From the NCBI GenBank assembly GCA_947476645.1, contig CANJRM010000017.1, positions 1-46,261 of the forward strand: a stretch of DNA of 46,261 nucleotides. The letters are read 5' to 3'. The notes beneath the pieces are model-generated. The model did no database searches and was not told the origin of the DNA. It worked only from the letters and a program-made list of their open reading frames with translations. The DNA comes from Bacteroidota bacterium. Its GTDB lineage: Bacteria > Bacteroidota > Bacteroidia > Chitinophagales > LD1. Position numbers and translations under genes: made by a program. Positions within the stretch are counted from its first letter, which is position 1; each line of letters starts with the position of its first letter. Of the stretch, positions 25,191-34,557 are shown piece after piece.

Positions 25191-28100
25191 GTTGTGATTT
25201 GCTTTCAGAATGTATCTTTGATTTATTGCTATCCAACGTTGAATTTAGACATGATACCGTTGGTGATGTTGTGATTTGCTTTCAGAATGTATCTTTGATT
25301 TATTGCTATCCAACGTTTCTCCTCTGCTTCCCTGTTTCCTCTTTGTTGTGATTTGCTTTCAGAATGTATCTTTGATTTATTGCTATCCAACTAATAAGAC
25401 AGCTAAAAAAAGCGGGAAAAAGTTGTGATTTGCTTTCAGAATGTATCTTTGATTTATTGCTATCCAACTATTCTAAGTTTGAAGCATTACAAGAAAGAGT
25501 TGTGATTTGCTTTCAGAATGTATCTTTGATTTATTGCTATCCAACGCCCGAAGGTTACGAATACGCCTTTTACGAGTTGTGATTTGCTTTCAGAATGTAT
25601 CTTTGATTTATTGCTATCCAACAAAACTTTCTCAAAGCCAACCTTCTCGCTGGTTGTGATTTGCTTTCAGAATGTATCTTTGATTTATTGCTATCCAACT
25701 TTTCCAGGTCCGCGCGATAAGTCCAGGTGTTGTGATTTGCTTTCAGAATGTATCTTTGATTTATTGCTATCCAACAGTGCAAAACTTTTGCAGTCACCGC
25801 TGTTTGTTGTGATTTGCTTTCAGAATGTATCTTTGATTTATTGCTATCCAACTTGAAGAACTGGCACTCACTCTTAGCGGTGGTTGTGATTTGCTTTCAG
25901 AATGTATCTTTGATTTATTGCTATCCAACAGGTTGCTTTCTGCATGATAGAATTGATAAGTTGTGATTTGCTTTCAGAATGTATCTTTGATTTATTGCTA
26001 TCCAACAGTGCTGCAGTTTACTATCACAAAGCGCCAGTTGTGATTTGCTTTCAGAATGTATCTTTGATTTATTGCTATCCAACTATGTTCTTGTCTTTGA
26101 GATTGTGTTGCAAGTTGTGATTTGCTTTCAGAATGTATCTTTGATTTATTGCTATCCAACAAAAATTGTAATCGGAACAGACAGCGAAGGTTGTGATTTG
26201 CTTTCAGAATGTATCTTTGATTTATTGCTATCCAACTAACAGTATCCTCCATCCATTGCGACATGTTGTGATTTGCTTTCAGAATGTATCTTTGATTTAT
26301 TGCTATCCAACTGCAGCTATAAAAGCAACTGCAGGCACTGGGTTGTGATTTGCTTTCAGAATGTATCTTTGATTTATTGCTATCCAACTATCATCGTATG
26401 TTTCCGATTCTGTTTTATGTTGTGATTTGCTTTCAGAATGTATCTTTGATTTATTGCTATCCAACAAATGTTTGTGGGTGGGAAACAAGGGTGTAAGTTG
26501 TGATTTGCTTTCAGAATGTATCTTTGATTTATTGCTATCCAACAACATCTCAAAAAGCATGAAGATTTGATTAGTTGTGATTTGCTTTCAGAATGTATCT
26601 TTGATTTATTGCTATCCAACATTACTTCTACTAATCATGCCGCAAATATAGTTGTGATTTGCTTTCAGAATGTATCTTTGATTTATTGCTATCCAACCAA
26701 ACACACCACAAGAGAGATTGAAAAGAAGTTGTGATTTGCTTTCAGAATGTATCTTTGATTTATTGCTATCCAACTATCAAAAAATAATTCAATGGCATCT
26801 TCACGTTGTGATTTGCTTTCAGAATGTATCTTTGATTTATTGCTATCCAACTCTTCTTCGTCCATTACCTTCCAGGAAATAGTTGTGATTTGCTTTCAGA
26901 ATGTATCTTTGATTTATTGCTATCCAACTGTTGAGCTTTACAGTAATGCAGCGGAGGTGTTGTGATTTGCTTTCAGAATGTATCTTTGATTTATTGCTAT
27001 CCAACGCACTTCTTTTACAATTTCTCTGGTTGTCAGTTGTGATTTGCTTTCAGAATGTATCTTTGATTTATTGCTATCCAACTACTTGAGAAAAAACAAA
27101 CTCAAGGTTCAAGTTGTGATTTGCTTTCAGAATGTATCTTTGATTTATTGCTATCCAACACCAACACTATTTTATTTGCCATGAGTTAGTTGTGATTTGC
27201 TTTCAGAATGTATCTTTGATTTATTGCTATCCAACAAAGTTGCTGATGTGTTAGTAGTGGACTCTGTTGTGATTTGCTTTCAGAATGTATCTTTGATTTA
27301 TTGCTATCCAACATCGTTAAATTCTTTCCAGTCCTCTAAGCGGTTGTGATTTGCTTTCAGAATGTATCTTTGATTTATTGCTATCCAACCAAAATCAGGT
27401 TTTGACCTTTTGCGAATTAGTTGTGATTTGCTTTCAGAATGTATCTTTGATTTATTGCTATCCAACCGTAACGCCATTTTCAACATTTACAATAGTGTTG
27501 TGATTTGCTTTCAGAATGTATCTTTGATTTATTGCTATCCAACAAGCCGTTTAAACTTGACACGATTACACATGTTGTGATTTGCTTTCAGAATGTATCT
27601 TTGATTTATTGCTATCCAACAATAATTCCTGATGATGCGGTTATTGAGATGTTGTGATTTGCTTTCAGAATGTATCTTTGATTTATTGCTATCCAACGGG
27701 GAAAGGTTACATTACAAGGTGAACCATGTTGTGATTTGCTTTCAGAATGTATCTTTGATTTATTGCTATCCAACGAAATATTTCATCGGGCGTTGCTACG
27801 TGACCGTTGTGATTTGCTTTCAGAATGTATCTTTGATTTATTGCTATCCAACCAAAGGATATTGCACCAATAGCACTCGGTTGTTGTGATTTGCTTTCAG
27901 AATGTATCTTTGATTTATTGCTATCCAACAATATCTTTTCGCAGGGGCGAACCCTATCGCGTTGTGATTTGCTTTCAGAATGTATCTTTGATTTATTGCT
28001 ATCCAACTAAACTTTTCTTAGAAAAAACCCTTGACGGGTTGTGATTTGCTTTCAGAATGTATCTTTGATTTATTGCTATCCAACATCATGGTTTGAGTAG

Positions 28101-28469
28101 AAAGGCCGGAACCTGTTGTGATTTGCTTTCAGAATGTATCTTTGATTTATTGCTATCCAACCTCTTGCATTGAAAGTGATTTAGCTTCTTTGTTGTGATT
28201 TGCTTTCAGAATGTATCTTTGATTTATTGCTATCCAACATCATCAATAAAGTGGTTGTCTTTAAATGTGTTGTGATTTGCTTTCAGAATGTATCTTTGAT
28301 TTATTGCTATCCAACAGCGAAAGAGTTTTTTGCACATATCAAAGCGTTGTGATTTGCTTTCAGAATGTATCTTTGATTTATTGCTATCCAACTGTGTGCT
28401 TCAAACCCGCTGCGAACCAAGTGTTGTGATTTGCTTTCAGAATGTATCTTTGATTTATTGCTATCCAAC
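25191..28469 (+). CRISPR. Type II-C CRISPR array, 43 repeats of 47 bp, 42 spacers
   Basis: The repeat starts GTTGTGATTTGCTTTCAGAA and ends TTTATTGCTATCCAAC. All 43 copies look identical by eye, including both ends. Spacers are mostly 30 nt (range 28-31). The crRNA sense is the plus strand, because the tracrRNA anti-repeat pairs with the 5' part of the repeat in this orientation. Each repeat contains TATCTTTG (repeat positions 23-30), a match to the Bacteroidota -7 box, with GTTG at positions 1-4 as a possible -33, so each spacer unit may be transcribed from its own promoter. The array is convergent with the cas operon. No spacer was recognised as matching the window. Confidence 0.98.
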
Positions 28470-28575: not shown

Positions 28576-29831
<1,256 letters not shown>

Positions 29832-29836
29832 CGCCC

Positions 29837-32800
29837 TTAATATTCACCTACCTGAACAATTTTGCCTAAATGGTTGATGCGGACTTTTACCATTTTATTT
29901 AGCTCTGGTAAAGTTTTATACTGCTTATAAATTATATCTTTAAGTGACTTTTCATCAACCGGCTTGCCATCAGCACTTTTACGCTGTACTACAGTTTCTA
30001 AATGGTGGCGGAATTGATAATCACGGATTGTGTTATTACCATAAACCTTTTTAGACATAGTTTGAACTCTAAATAAATTTGGGCTTATCAAATTGTAATT
30101 ATTGGGATTTAGCAAATCAATTTCATGTGGGTTAAAGCCTGTTGTTTCGTTCGGAAAAACGAAGTATTCGTTTTGTTTCATGGTAAATAGAAACTGCCAA
30201 CCTTCTTTTTGTTTATAGTCTTTATTGATAATTGGTAGCCTTTGATTAACGCGTGTAACGGCTTCGTGAAATGAAATTACTTCGTCTTGCAGGTTGCCTT
30301 TTTCGTCTTTATAAACAGCTACATGGTGGTTGCCGGAGTTGCTTACAAAATCGACAGGAATGGTGTTGCCGTTGTTATCTAATATTGGATTGCCATCTTT
30401 GTCTTTTTTATCATGCAGAGGTTCAGCTGTGCTTGCTCCTGTAATTGTTACACGTTTAATGCAAACGCCTTTTTCTTTGTTGAGCCAGATTGGATTATCG
30501 GTAAGGTTGGAGAATGCTTTTTTTGCATCGCCTTTATGTTCAGCTAAACGGGCCTGTAATAGTTTACGGATATTTACATCTACCACTTTCTCAACATTTA
30601 GTTCGGGGTTTATTTCTTTACGGATAGTGTAAACTGGTTTGTACCAAACCAGTTTTACTTTCTCCGGAACTTTTAGGGTTTGTTCTTTATCTAAGTAAAG
30701 AGGTGCTTTATCTAAACTGTTTTTGCCGGTGAATGCTTTTTTAGGGTCGTTCTCAAATTGAGCTAAACGATTGAGCAACGCCATGCGATAGCTTTCTTTA
30801 GCCACTTTACTTATTTTTTCAGCATCGAAGTTGCTTCCTACTTTTACTATATCTGTTTCGTATTGCTGAATGCTGCCATACACGGTTTCTAAATGCAGTT
30901 GCCCGCGCGGGGTTAGTTCTGTTTTTGTTTTTATGCCGCTGGCTGTTTTAAACTTATTGTTGTTTTTGGTTACTACTTTATTTTTGGCTTTGTAAGAAAC
31001 CAAGGTGTTTTCTAAATTTTTCTTGGCTTCGGTTCTAAATTCGTTTAAAGGCATGGGGGCTTTAAAACGGAGTTTGTTTTTTTCATCGCGATATAATTCT
31101 TTCTGCTCTATGCCATAGATGCTGCTGCTTTTATCGCTGCGGGCATTAAGATTGTTAAGGTATTGAACATGGCTGTATTTAGTAAAGGCAACTGTAAGTG
31201 CATCCATAGCATGGTGGCGATGGTCGCTACGTTTGGTCCAGTCGGTAATGCGTTTAATAACCTGCCCATCGCGGTTAGTAAACTGATGAGTTAAACCTAA
31301 GCCATTGTATTTATCCCAACTAAGTTCCTGCATAATGTCTACCAGTTGCCAATCTTCCCTAAGTTTATCGGTAACACTACCGGTGGTAGTGGTTACAGTG
31401 CGAAAAACTTCTTCAAGCATTGTCTTGGCTTTTTTTGCAATGTATTGTGTGTTGCGTAACTCTCTTTCAATAAAGCCATCAGGAATTTCATTTCCTTTCA
31501 TCAACAGCTTTTTGTGTTTGGTTTTACTGATTTTAAAATTCTTGTAGAAATCTTCTACGCGCGATTGGTATTGTGTCAATCCTTCTGCACCTTGCTTGTC
31601 GGCTACATAATCAATAGCGGTTCTATCTGCTTTTTCAATGTTGGCAGATTTTAGTTCTAAGGTTTTGTTAGAAAAAGAATCATCGAACAATTTTGCTTTG
31701 GCAACAATATGTTCAATGTCGAATTTTTTGGAGAATAATTCATCTGGAGCTATGTAGGTATTGGTGTAAAGTGTTTTGTAGCCGTTGTGTTCTAACTCTA
31801 AGTAAAGTTTATAGCGAATAATATCGTTGCGGCTAACGTTTGGTAAACCAAACTCTGTCTGCAATATTTTGCGGTATTTATCGTGGTTGTCTTTTGCTTT
31901 GGTCATGCTTTCGGTTGCTTCCTGCCGCTCTTTTGCACTCTTTTTTAATTCACGCGCTAATTCAACCCGAATTTCATCTGGCTTGCCATATTCTTCAATT
32001 GCAGCGTTAACCACGTTCACCATTTGGTTCAATATCTTTTCTACAACTGGATTGCGAAGGGTGTTCTTTGGCAGAACTTCTAACTTATTTTTTAATACAC
32101 GAACTGCCTGTTCTTCGGCAGTTAAAGAGTGAGAGTGATTGTAGCCCGCATACTCACAAGCTACATCGTATTTAAGCCCATCTTTTAGATGCGGTAATAT
32201 TTTTCGTATTGCTTTTGAACTTAAACTGCCGTAATCATCTTGAAAACTTACGTTAGCCATTATTCGGGCATACTCCGGTTCAAAACCAAACTTTGTTTTG
32301 AGTAGTTTAATCAGATTTTCATCGCCTGTGTTGGTGTCATCACCTTCAAATGAGTAAAGCAAGTGCCATAATTGAAAATGAGGTTGTTTCTCTAATTCGT
32401 TGCCTTCAATTGAGGAATCGAAATCAAGCACGGAGTTATTGATGCCAAGCCCAGTGAATAGTTCTTTGATAGTTTGCTTTTCTTCATCAGCGTTCATCTT
32501 GCTAAAGTCAATAGCATCATGACCTGATATTTCAGCAATCTTTTTATACGCTTCGTAAAAGACGGCATTGGTTCTATTGCCTTCTATTTCTTTGTAGTTT
32601 AGGTCTAATTCAGACGGCTTTTTAAATAACAGCTTTAATGCTTCGGGCTTACTTAATTTTTCCTTCACATTAAGTTCTGCAAAAAGTTGTTGTTTTTCTT
32701 CTAAATCCAGTTCTCTTTTTTCGCCTGTCTTTTTGTTGGTTACTTCAAGGTTGTTCAGTATTTGCCAAATCTTAAACTCTTGAAACAGTAGAGAAGATTT

Positions 32801-34012
32801 AGGGCATACTCTAAGACCTCTTACTTTAGTTTTAGTTTTACCAGCAATTACCGCTTCTACCTTTTTGTTTTCAAACTCGCAAAAGCTAATAAGCCCCTTT
32901 TGTGTTTTTAATCTGCGTTGATAAAAAATGATAATGTCGCGCAGTTCGGTTTTTAGTTCTTCGGTAAGTGCTTTGTGATGCTTGGCTTGCTCTGTGTAAA
33001 TGGTGTTGAACTCATCTAAATAATCTTGTCGGTAAAACACTTGCCCTTTTAGGCGTGTGTGCGGATTTTCTTCCAATTGTTTCCAGAGGTATTGCCCAAC
33101 GGTAAGTTTATTAAAGAATAGTTCTTTACTACGGTCGCTAATAGCACCAAGGTAGCCGCTTGATTCGCTTATTTGACCATTGATTTCAATTAAAGCCTCG
33201 GCAACTTCACCTATGGTTAATTGTTGGTTAATTGCTTTGTTTCTTAGTTCATAACGCTGCAAGCGTTTCTCTTTGAAATCGCCTTTAAGTTCAGGGGTAT
33301 CTATTTTTAAGGTCTTGGTAAAGTAATCGGCAGTGGCTTTTTTCTTTATTCCTTTTAACAACTCTTTCGCTTCGTTAGTTAAGATCGAAGCATGAAATTG
33401 TTTTTGAAAATTCCAGATAGTATCAAACTCGTTTTGTAAATCTGATCGGTAGAAGTCGGGAATGTATTTGCCTCCTTTGCTTAGTAATTCAAAAACAAAT
33501 TGACCAGGTGTATGGTTATTGTCGTACAACTGCTTGGCAATTTTCATTCCGTCAATGAGTTGCCCTTCATCTTCATTCTTTGCTTTACGACTGCTTTTGT
33601 AACCGCGCTTCTTATTTATCATTAATAAAGTGCGGGCAAAATCTTCTAAGGTTATTTCTGCAGTAGCTGCTTTAGCGCGGTTTTGGTAAGTTCTAAAGGT
33701 GGAAGCATTGCCTTGTTCTGAGAGCAAGGTTTCATCGTTAATAAAGCCATGCTTCTTTAATACTTCTATGAGGTTTTCTCTTCTTAGTTTATAGCGTTGC
33801 AGGTTTCTTCTTGCGCCCCGTTGTAAAGTTCTATCTGCATTGGATGAAATTGGCTTCCCTTTTTCGAAATTGGTTTGCTCATCGGTGGTAAGCGGGTTTA
33901 CGCGAACACCTATTTTAATGATAGTTGATTTCTCATTTGCATTTTCTGCTTCATTTACCATTGCCCATCCTATAGAGGTGGTGCCAAGGTCTAATCCTAA
34001 AACTTTTTTCAT
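29837..34012 (-). CDS. cas9: RNA-guided endonuclease Cas9 (type II-C)
   Basis: Start at the ATG at 34012 (MKKVLGLDLGTTSIGWAMV), giving 1391 residues; the longer in-frame start at 34060 would run through the tracrRNA anti-repeat. RuvC-I D8 (LDLGTTSIG), then an arginine-rich bridge helix (RTLQRGARRNLQRYKLRRENL), a large alpha-helical recognition lobe, RuvC-II E684 (RVELARELKK), HNH with E767-H768 (FDIEHIVAKAKLFDDSF) and N791, and RuvC-III H934 and D937 (DHRHHAMDALTVAF). All nuclease residues are present, so both target strands can be cut. 1391 residues is large for II-C, though II-C proteins of about 1400 occur in Bacteroidota. No csn2 or cas4 gene is nearby. Confidence 0.97.
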   Translation of the reverse strand: MKKVLGLDLGTTSIGWAMVNEAENANEKSTIIKIGVRVNPLTTDEQTNFEKGKPISSNADRTLQRGARRNLQRYKLRRENLIEVLKKHGFINDETLLSEQGNASTFRTYQNRAKAATAEITLEDFARTLLMINKKRGYKSSRKAKNEDEGQLIDGMKIAKQLYDNNHTPGQFVFELLSKGGKYIPDFYRSDLQNEFDTIWNFQKQFHASILTNEAKELLKGIKKKATADYFTKTLKIDTPELKGDFKEKRLQRYELRNKAINQQLTIGEVAEALIEINGQISESSGYLGAISDRSKELFFNKLTVGQYLWKQLEENPHTRLKGQVFYRQDYLDEFNTIYTEQAKHHKALTEELKTELRDIIIFYQRRLKTQKGLISFCEFENKKVEAVIAGKTKTKVRGLRVCPKSSLLFQEFKIWQILNNLEVTNKKTGEKRELDLEEKQQLFAELNVKEKLSKPEALKLLFKKPSELDLNYKEIEGNRTNAVFYEAYKKIAEISGHDAIDFSKMNADEEKQTIKELFTGLGINNSVLDFDSSIEGNELEKQPHFQLWHLLYSFEGDDTNTGDENLIKLLKTKFGFEPEYARIMANVSFQDDYGSLSSKAIRKILPHLKDGLKYDVACEYAGYNHSHSLTAEEQAVRVLKNKLEVLPKNTLRNPVVEKILNQMVNVVNAAIEEYGKPDEIRVELARELKKSAKERQEATESMTKAKDNHDKYRKILQTEFGLPNVSRNDIIRYKLYLELEHNGYKTLYTNTYIAPDELFSKKFDIEHIVAKAKLFDDSFSNKTLELKSANIEKADRTAIDYVADKQGAEGLTQYQSRVEDFYKNFKISKTKHKKLLMKGNEIPDGFIERELRNTQYIAKKAKTMLEEVFRTVTTTTGSVTDKLREDWQLVDIMQELSWDKYNGLGLTHQFTNRDGQVIKRITDWTKRSDHRHHAMDALTVAFTKYSHVQYLNNLNARSDKSSSIYGIEQKELYRDEKNKLRFKAPMPLNEFRTEAKKNLENTLVSYKAKNKVVTKNNNKFKTASGIKTKTELTPRGQLHLETVYGSIQQYETDIVKVGSNFDAEKISKVAKESYRMALLNRLAQFENDPKKAFTGKNSLDKAPLYLDKEQTLKVPEKVKLVWYKPVYTIRKEINPELNVEKVVDVNIRKLLQARLAEHKGDAKKAFSNLTDNPIWLNKEKGVCIKRVTITGASTAEPLHDKKDKDGNPILDNNGNTIPVDFVSNSGNHHVAVYKDEKGNLQDEVISFHEAVTRVNQRLPIINKDYKQKEGWQFLFTMKQNEYFVFPNETTGFNPHEIDLLNPNNYNLISPNLFRVQTMSKKVYGNNTIRDYQFRHHLETVVQRKSADGKPVDEKSLKDIIYKQYKTLPELNKMVKVRINHLGKIVQVGEY

Positions 34013-34029
34013 GATTGGGGTTTTATTTT

Positions 34030-34037
34030 TATTTTTG
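34030..34037 (+). promoter_or_regulatory. tracrRNA promoter -7 box
   Basis: TATTTTTG matches TAnnTTTG and lies six bases before the predicted tracrRNA 5' end, inside the cas9 5' leader on the opposite strand. Confidence 0.6.
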
Positions 34038-34042
34038 TTACT

Positions 34043-34117
34043 CATTCTGAAGCAAATCACAATAAGGATTTATTCCGTTGTGAAAACATCTAAGCCGGGG
34101 CAACTCGGCTTTTTTTT
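34043..34117 (+). ncRNA. tracrRNA
   Basis: The anti-repeat CATTCTGAAGCAAATCACAA (34043-34062) is complementary to CRISPR repeat positions 2-22 with a single one-base gap. It is followed by the AAGGATTTATTCCGTTGTGA nexus-like segment, common in type II-C tracrRNAs, and a terminator hairpin AAGCCG / CGGCTT (34092-34111) with an eight-T run. Length about 75 nt. It is transcribed opposite to cas9, starting 31 bp upstream of its ATG. It forms the guide duplex with crRNA and loads Cas9; RNase III processing is expected. Confidence 0.9.
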
Positions 34118-34150
34118 ATTATCATAAGCATGTCCAACGCTATATTAGTT

Positions 34151-34158
34151 CAAATCTA
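34151..34158 (-). promoter_or_regulatory. Candidate cas9 operon promoter -7 box
   Basis: On the minus strand TAGATTTG matches TAnnTTTG. With AATTG about 12-17 bases further upstream as a weak -33, transcription would start near 34144. The resulting leader of about 130 nt would be fully antisense to the tracrRNA. Confidence 0.45.
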
Positions 34159-34293: not shown

Positions 34294-34557
34294 ATGCAAA
34301 TAGATAACTCGGAAAGGATTTTAGTCAAGCTTGATGCTAATACAGATGGTAGTATTGAAATTGCCACCTACTACGAAAGCTTTGGCTCCGGAATGAAATA
34401 TACCACCTTCAAAAATGGTAAAGCGATCGGATGGGCAACTAATCTAAAGTACGCATTGGATAATCATTATTTATTCGTGCATCATCAAATTCGGAAGATA
34501 TTCGATGAAGACGAATTCAAGGATATACCCAAATACGGAGAGCAGGGAAAGCGATAA
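34294..34557 (+). CDS. Hypothetical protein, 87 aa
   Basis: Not recognised. ATG at 34294; a soluble acidic/aromatic protein (GSIEIATYYESFGSGMKYTTFKNG) with no motif known to me. It stands alone between the tracrRNA and the convergent lysozyme gene, with no clear promoter. Coding status rests on composition and an ATG in an A-rich context, so moderate confidence. Confidence 0.5.
   Translation: MQIDNSERILVKLDANTDGSIEIATYYESFGSGMKYTTFKNGKAIGWATNLKYALDNHYLFVHHQIRKIFDEDEFKDIPKYGEQGKR

What the first reader, a model, noticed from the sequence alone, without database searches (positions are those of the whole stretch)
34012..34158. tracrRNA lies antisense to the cas9 leader, which thereby contains a CRISPR-repeat mimic
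Seen: the tracrRNA (34043-34117, plus) sits immediately upstream of the cas9 ATG (34012, minus). Its promoter box TATTTTTG (34030-34037) lies between. The reverse strand of the anti-repeat matches repeat positions 2-22 with one base missing. If cas9 is transcribed from TAGATTTG (34151-34158), its 5' leader pairs perfectly with tracrRNA along its whole length. Inference: tracrRNA can pair with and control cas9 mRNA (duplex cleavage by RNase III, or Cas9-bound repression), a built-in feedback loop.
Basis: partly seen in the sequence, partly recalled or inferred. Interest (0 to 1): 0.8.

Follow-up and report, generated by a model that had tools for sequence, protein, structure and literature searches.

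The report
Ordinary tracrRNA gene facing cas9
A small RNA gene that bacteria need for their CRISPR-Cas9 defence sits back to back with the cas9 gene, as in most relatives examined; here the two are so close that the cas9 message may be copied through the small RNA gene in reverse, but a control loop built on that is unproven.

Summary
The letters are as reported. A type II-C locus (cas9, cas1, cas2, 43 repeats) has a tracrRNA gene head to head with cas9, so the cas9 strand carries the reverse complement of the anti-repeat: a repeat look-alike by necessity. This layout is usual in the Bacteroidota loci examined: 74 of 81 loci in one sample, 74 of 78 places in a pattern-based second one. The missing base is a conserved bulge (37 of 45 loci). 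Spacing is two-peaked. In roomy loci (80 nt or more) cas9 often has its own TAnnTTTG box between tracrRNA and ATG (38 of 73); in compact loci like this one (40-79 nt) 1 of 71 has. Antisense overlap is therefore plausible here, but the proposed cas9 promoter is only marginally better than chance (p 0.03-0.05), boxes beyond tracrRNA in compact relatives show no clear strand bias, and two relatives have tracrRNA flipped to run with cas9. The feedback loop is unproven and not general to the family.

The parts
29837..34012 (-). cas9 (1391 aa), type II Cas9
   Evidence: TIGR01865 486.5 bits; Pfam RuvC_III, HNH_4, Cas9_a
28917..29831 (-). cas1, type II (NMENI) form
   Evidence: TIGR03639 306 bits
28576..28920 (-). 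cas2
   Evidence: TIGR01573 67.6 bits
25191..28469 (+). CRISPR array, 43 copies of a 47-nt repeat, 42 spacers; crRNA sense on + (opposite to the cas genes, inferred from the anti-repeat); each repeat holds TATCTTTG
34030..34037 (+). TATTTTTG, -7-type box of the tracrRNA promoter
   Evidence: a strict box 31-37 nt before the end of CACAA in 56 of 74 loci of sample 1
34043..34117 (+). tracrRNA: anti-repeat about 34043-34062, core CACAATAAGGATTTATTCCGTTGTG 34058-34082, terminator hairpin 34092-34111
34043..34062 (-). repeat look-alike on the cas9 strand (reverse complement of the anti-repeat), one base shorter than repeat positions 2-22
34151..34158 (-). TAGATTTG, candidate cas9 promoter box beyond the tracrRNA end; would give a leader antisense to the whole tracrRNA
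   Evidence: p 0.03-0.05; weaker under the model
34013..34042 (-). gap between cas9 ATG and tracrRNA start: A-rich, no cas9-sense TAnnTTTG box
   Evidence: A-rich positions seen over 71 compact loci

Best explanation
This is an ordinary type II-C tracrRNA gene of Bacteroidota, transcribed away from cas9 from its own TAnnTTTG promoter (inferred from the motif), whose product pairs with the repeat part of crRNA and loads Cas9 (established for tracrRNAs in general, recalled). It belongs to a compact layout in which the repeat look-alike begins 40-79 nt before the cas9 ATG. Because no cas9 promoter is recognisable in that gap, cas9 is most likely transcribed from beyond the tracrRNA gene (inferred), so its leader is antisense to tracrRNA and the repeat look-alike in it is a by-product. 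Any mutual dampening of the two RNAs would be an incidental effect of the compact layout, not a dedicated loop shared by the family.
For: tracrRNA: anti-repeats fit their own locus's repeat better than those of other loci (mean score 31.9 against 21.5) and lack a base in 37 of 45 loci; core nearly invariant in the 42 of 74 sequences aligned; 99.8% of helix cells paired, one pair changed on both sides in 2 rows; core found in 56 of 396 genomes of the order and 26 of 395 of the phylum, reversed pattern in none. Layout: 74 of 81 and 74 of 78 divergent. Compact class: clustered on the Cas9 tree (10 changes, shuffled mean 25.1, 0 of 500 as low); 1 of 71 with a cas9-sense box in the gap against 38 of 73 roomy loci. 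A-rich peak at -13 to -11 in both classes fits a leadered cas9 mRNA (inference).
Against: The strict box misses many likely promoters in the window's order: the tracrRNA box itself is found in only 8 of 39 compact loci of sample 2 and 18 of 32 of sample 1, so a cas9 promoter in the gap could be overlooked. With the refitted model, 3 of 64 compact gaps do exceed the 95% shuffle level, about chance. The far region of compact loci has 11 of 69 loci above that level on the cas9 strand but 7 of 69 on the other, and 2 of 32 on each strand. No transcript data.
Confidence: 0.68

Rival explanations
1. One reading: tracrRNA pairs with the cas9 leader, RNase III cuts the duplex or Cas9-tracrRNA holds the leader, and free tracrRNA thus lowers cas9 expression.
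For: Full antisense overlap if cas9 starts near 34144; TAGATTTG is the best cas9-strand box in the region; compact layout clustered on the Cas9 tree; box in the gap in 1 of 71 compact loci; strict box within 100 nt beyond tracrRNA in 7 of 68 compact loci on the cas9 strand against 4 of 68 on the other.
Against: Relatives with a box in the gap, or with tracrRNA flipped or far away; candidate box marginal; far boxes without clear strand bias; in one Flavobacterium psychrophilum strain a TAnnTTTG promoter was placed inside an IS982 element lying between tracrRNA and cas9 (PMC10309648, passages).
Confidence: 0.17
2. cas9 has its own unrecognised promoter in the 30-nt gap or is driven from a two-way promoter shared with tracrRNA; the RNAs do not overlap.
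For: Roomy relatives have cas9 boxes in the gap, 20 of 39 of them between -38 and -25; promoter letters are looser in compact loci.
Against: Compact gaps: 3 of 64 above 95% of shuffles (7 gaps too short to score), against 26 of 73 roomy ones; tracrRNA body 0 of 70.
Confidence: 0.15
3. A tracr-L-like natural single guide: a longer tracrRNA form carries its own repeat-like part and guides Cas9 to the cas9 promoter.
For: Known in type II-A (PMC11417352: abstract, introduction and passages seen); L039 and L042 have a repeat-like stretch in tracrRNA sense before the anti-repeat.
Against: No repeat-like stretch in about 540 nt before the window's tracrRNA (score 16, shuffle mean 15.6).
Confidence: 0.02

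Closest known systems
Type II-C loci of Bacteroidota (Riemerella anatipestifer, Flavobacterium psychrophilum, F. columnare)
   Same: R. anatipestifer: cas1, cas2 and cas9, 47-nt repeat, and an anti-repeat TGAAAGCAATTCACAA upstream of cas9 (PMC5006608, passages). F. psychrophilum: cas9 lies between tracrRNA and cas1; repeat-borne promoters inferred there and in F. columnare (PMC10309648 and PMC8092290, passages)
   Different: The passages seen do not discuss RNA overlap of tracrRNA with the cas9 leader or two spacing classes
tracr-L autoregulation of type II-A cas operons (PMC11417352)
   Same: Cas9 level tied to a tracrRNA
   Different: Works by a long tracrRNA that guides Cas9 to the cas promoter DNA; no repeat-like part upstream of the anti-repeat seen here
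scaRNA (Francisella novicida; proposed for other type II systems, PMC6199352, start of abstract and passages; Neisseria meningitidis, PMC13431127, passages)
   Same: A repeat-like RNA outside the array that could pair with tracrRNA
   Different: Here the repeat-like stretch is only the other strand of tracrRNA inside a putative mRNA leader, without a clean terminator of its own
cis-antisense RNA to an mRNA leader, cut by RNase III (general class, recalled)
   Same: Geometry, if overlap is real
   Different: No evidence of an effect

Membership tests
Type II-C CRISPR-Cas | cas9, cas1 and cas2 only; no csn2 or cas4 in the operon | tested here: met
   From the array end 28469 to tracrRNA the minus strand is filled by cas2, cas1 and cas9; most other ORFs of the window were not scanned
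tracrRNA | anti-repeat complementary to the locus's own repeat | tested here: met
tracrRNA | nexus hairpin and terminator hairpin after the anti-repeat | tested here: met
   covariation support is thin because 7 of 10 pairs never vary
tracrRNA (Rfam RF02348) | Rfam gathering score | tested here: not met
   18.5 bits against 70, E 1.6, though the best-scoring family for the 451-nt stretch; the Rfam label is not claimed
tracrRNA | transcribed and bound by Cas9 | not testable with these tools
   no RNA data
Cis-antisense regulator of cas9 | the two transcripts overlap | tested here: inconclusive
Cis-antisense regulator of cas9 | overlap conserved in relatives | tested here: inconclusive
   compact layout clustered on the tree, but roomy, flipped and distant layouts exist
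Cis-antisense regulator of cas9 | tracrRNA level changes cas9 level | not testable with these tools
   needs an experiment
tracr-L | repeat-like segment upstream of the anti-repeat in the same RNA | tested here: not met
scaRNA | separate small RNA with its own start and terminator and repeat homology | tested here: inconclusive
   repeat-like stretch on the minus strand; a minus-strand hairpin 34111-34092 is called terminator-like but its tail is AGATGTTTTC and it lies before the repeat-like stretch

The most novel reading that the evidence does not exclude
Bacteroidota type II-C loci come in two discrete layouts. In the roomy one, cas9 and tracrRNA have separate back-to-back promoters. In the compact one, which includes the window, cas9 has no promoter of its own in the gap, its mRNA is read through the tracrRNA gene, and unpaired tracrRNA acts as an antisense brake, so that Cas9 output rises only when crRNA uses up tracrRNA.
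Probability: 0.15. Interest if true: 0.62.

Novelty: new member of a known kind. Interest (0 to 1): 0.3.

Why it matters
If the overlap is real, compact loci would be a natural system in which the guide cofactor limits its own nuclease's mRNA, a way to balance Cas9 against crRNA supply. Even if not, the two-peaked spacing gives a clean, testable contrast: compact and roomy relatives should differ in where the cas9 mRNA begins.

Tried and rejected
Strict TAnnTTTG counts beyond tracrRNA: a hint in sample 1 (4 boxes in the first 50 nt on the cas9 strand of compact loci, 0 on the other) was weaker in sample 2 (2 against 0), and a looser model gave 29 hits on the cas9 strand against 27 on the other over all bins shown; not used as support.

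Orientation of the upstream gene as the driver of compact cas9: 18 co-directional and 10 divergent in compact, 17 and 21 in roomy, 8 of 74 loci without a call (rough ORF picks); not conclusive.

Spacers aimed at the cas9 upstream region: best of 42 scored 20, shuffled spacers 21.2 on average; rejected. tracr-L: rejected for the window. Sigma-70 type promoters: 2 found, both on plus, 6.3 expected from shuffles.

Papers not held: four DOIs looked up (from memory: Chylinski 2013 and 2014, Faure 2019, one on CRISPR-derived regulatory RNAs); nothing from them is used. Searches for earlier reports: for tracrRNA/cas9 overlap or control, for spacing. Some listings were capped (20 of 22, 20 of 81, 20 of 31, 8 of 9 shown). 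I saw no description of the overlap or of two spacing classes in the listings and passages; that is not proof that none is in print. PMC10013973 was seen in passages and gave nothing on this.

Full report
What is there. It holds a type II-C locus: cas2, cas1 and cas9 on the minus strand and 43 exact 47-nt repeats with 42 spacers at 25191-28469. The anti-repeat implies that the array's crRNA sense is on the plus strand, opposite to the cas genes. Upstream of cas9 lies a tracrRNA gene on the plus strand, 34043-34117, with a TATTTTTG box at 34030-34037, an anti-repeat, a short nexus hairpin and a terminator. Rfam's tracrRNA model is the best-scoring family for this stretch but far below its threshold (18.5 of 70 bits, E 1.6).

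The reported letters are right. The repeat look-alike on the cas9 strand scores 35 against a shuffle maximum of 25 in 2000. But it is simply the reverse strand of the anti-repeat, so any RNA copied across any tracrRNA gene from the other side would carry one. Nothing marks it as a separately evolved element.

Relatives. With the window that makes 81 loci; 74 have the repeat look-alike upstream of cas9 in cas9 sense (within 450 nt, score 18 or more, beginning TTGT or TTGC). Of the other seven, L033 has a tracrRNA core 1.2 kb upstream, L048 and L058 have it running with cas9, and L060, L069, L089 and L103 show no core in the fetched DNA. In L048 the cas9 ATG follows the tracrRNA terminator hairpin by about 23 nt (read), so cas9 there is presumably read through from it. 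A second sample came from a pattern search for the core: 56 of 396 genomes of the window's order and 26 of 395 of the phylum had it, some genomes being in both draws, and the reversed pattern occurred in none. I fetched 78 places, leaving out the window itself and counting places shared by both searches once; 74 have the Cas9 start motif on the opposite strand within 620 nt, none has it on the tracrRNA strand, and 4 showed no motif. Four were duplicates of the first sample and were dropped, leaving 70 and 144 loci in all. The samples differ in choice: the first favours Cas9s like the window's, the second requires an exact core.

The missing base. Of 45 loci with a readable own repeat, 37 lack at least one base in the anti-repeat, mostly just after GC; anti-repeats fit their own repeat (mean score 31.9) better than those of other loci (21.5). 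So the gap in the match is a conserved bulge of the crRNA:tracrRNA duplex. In 42 of the 74 tracrRNAs, the ones I aligned, the core CACAATAAGGATTATTCCGTTGTG is nearly invariant; its helix is paired in 99.8% of cells, with one pair changed on both sides in two rows. Seven of ten pairs never vary, and 43 of 500 shuffles reach one such pair, so covariation support is thin.

Spacing. The distance from the look-alike to the cas9 ATG has two peaks: 66 of 144 loci at 40-69 nt, 5 at 70-79, 12 at 80-109, 51 at 110-149 and 10 above. I call the 71 below 80 compact and the 73 others roomy. The compact label is clustered on the Cas9 tree (10 changes; shuffled mean 25.1; 0 of 500 as low; quick LG+G4 tree of 80 of the 81 loci, the truncated L086 left out), and the window groups with L024 and L025, all compact.

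Promoters. A strict tracrRNA box lies 31-37 nt before the end of CACAA in 56 of 74 loci. On the cas9 strand, a strict TAnnTTTG box lies between tracrRNA and ATG in 30 of 42 roomy and 0 of 32 compact loci of sample 1, in 8 of 31 and 1 of 39 of sample 2, 38 of 73 and 1 of 71 together. By length this is 39 boxes in 9365 nt against 1 in 2616 nt, where the regions beyond tracrRNA give 40 in about 42,500 nt on the same strand (computed). A weight-matrix scan agrees: 26 of 42 roomy and 0 of 32 compact gaps above 95% of shuffles, and 26 of 73 and 3 of 64 with a model refitted on compact tracrRNA promoters, 7 gaps being too short. So where there is room, cas9 often seems to start after tracrRNA and the two RNAs need not overlap. 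A published case fits: in one F. psychrophilum strain the authors place a TAnnTTTG cas9 promoter in an insertion element between tracrRNA and cas9 (PMC10309648, passages). In compact loci no cas9 promoter stands out in the gap or in the tracrRNA body (0 of 70), and the A-rich peak at -13 to -11 suggests a leadered message; this is why overlap is likely in the window. It is inference.

Limits. The strict box finds the tracrRNA promoter itself in only 18 of 32 and 8 of 39 compact loci, so absence of a cas9 box is weak evidence.

What it works like, and what it is. It is a tracrRNA gene by anatomy. It may also act as a cis-antisense RNA on cas9, but that is untested. It does not look like a tracr-L: no repeat-like stretch precedes the anti-repeat. 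The type II-A tracr-L mechanism (PMC11417352: abstract, introduction and passages) shows that tracrRNA-based control of cas9 exists in nature, by another route.

Verdict. The two-peaked spacing, which I did not see described in the listings and passages of ten paper searches (one of them, aimed at spacing), is the part worth a specialist's attention.

Noticed in passing
25191-28469, and repeats of L024-L103: Repeats often hold a TAnnTTTG box (TATCTTTG at position 23 in the window): 30 of 48 readable repeats, 27 of the 30 at positions 23-27, against 2.2 of 48 expected from shuffled repeats. This fits a promoter inside each repeat; papers on Flavobacterium infer repeat-borne promoters from a TTG motif (PMC8092290, PMC10309648, passages), while the R. 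anatipestifer paper found none in its repeats (PMC5006608, passages).
   Followed up: partly
L166, L029, L093 (just after the tracrRNA terminator, tracrRNA sense); looser forms in L088 and L095: Extra units of the form AAATGTTTCA ... GTGA(N)AAAACATT + AAGC-type hairpin + T-run follow tracrRNA, three in tandem in L166; their tails resemble the tracrRNA tail (by eye). A motif search over 144 loci hit 6, 3 of them with both halves. Could be small RNAs derived from or partnered with tracrRNA.
   Followed up: partly
L024, about 40 nt beyond the tracrRNA terminator: A decayed second tracrRNA-like copy (TTACAATACGGATTATTCCGTTATGGAAATATT) follows the intact one in the window's nearest Cas9 relative (by eye).
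   Followed up: no
L048 and L058: tracrRNA runs in the same direction as cas9; in L048 the cas9 ATG lies about 23 nt after the tracrRNA terminator hairpin, so cas9 seems to depend on read-through.
   Followed up: partly
L039, L042 upstream of cas9: The tracrRNA promoter region contains a repeat-like stretch (TTTTGAAAGCAAATCCAA on the cas9 strand), as if built from a CRISPR repeat.
   Followed up: no
34057-34083: Free tracrRNA is predicted to fold its TCACAA, needed for the crRNA, onto a downstream TTGTGA that matches the start of the repeat; crRNA would have to displace it.
   Followed up: partly
34294-34557: An 87-aa ORF on plus without a Pfam or NCBIfam match lies downstream of tracrRNA.
   Followed up: no
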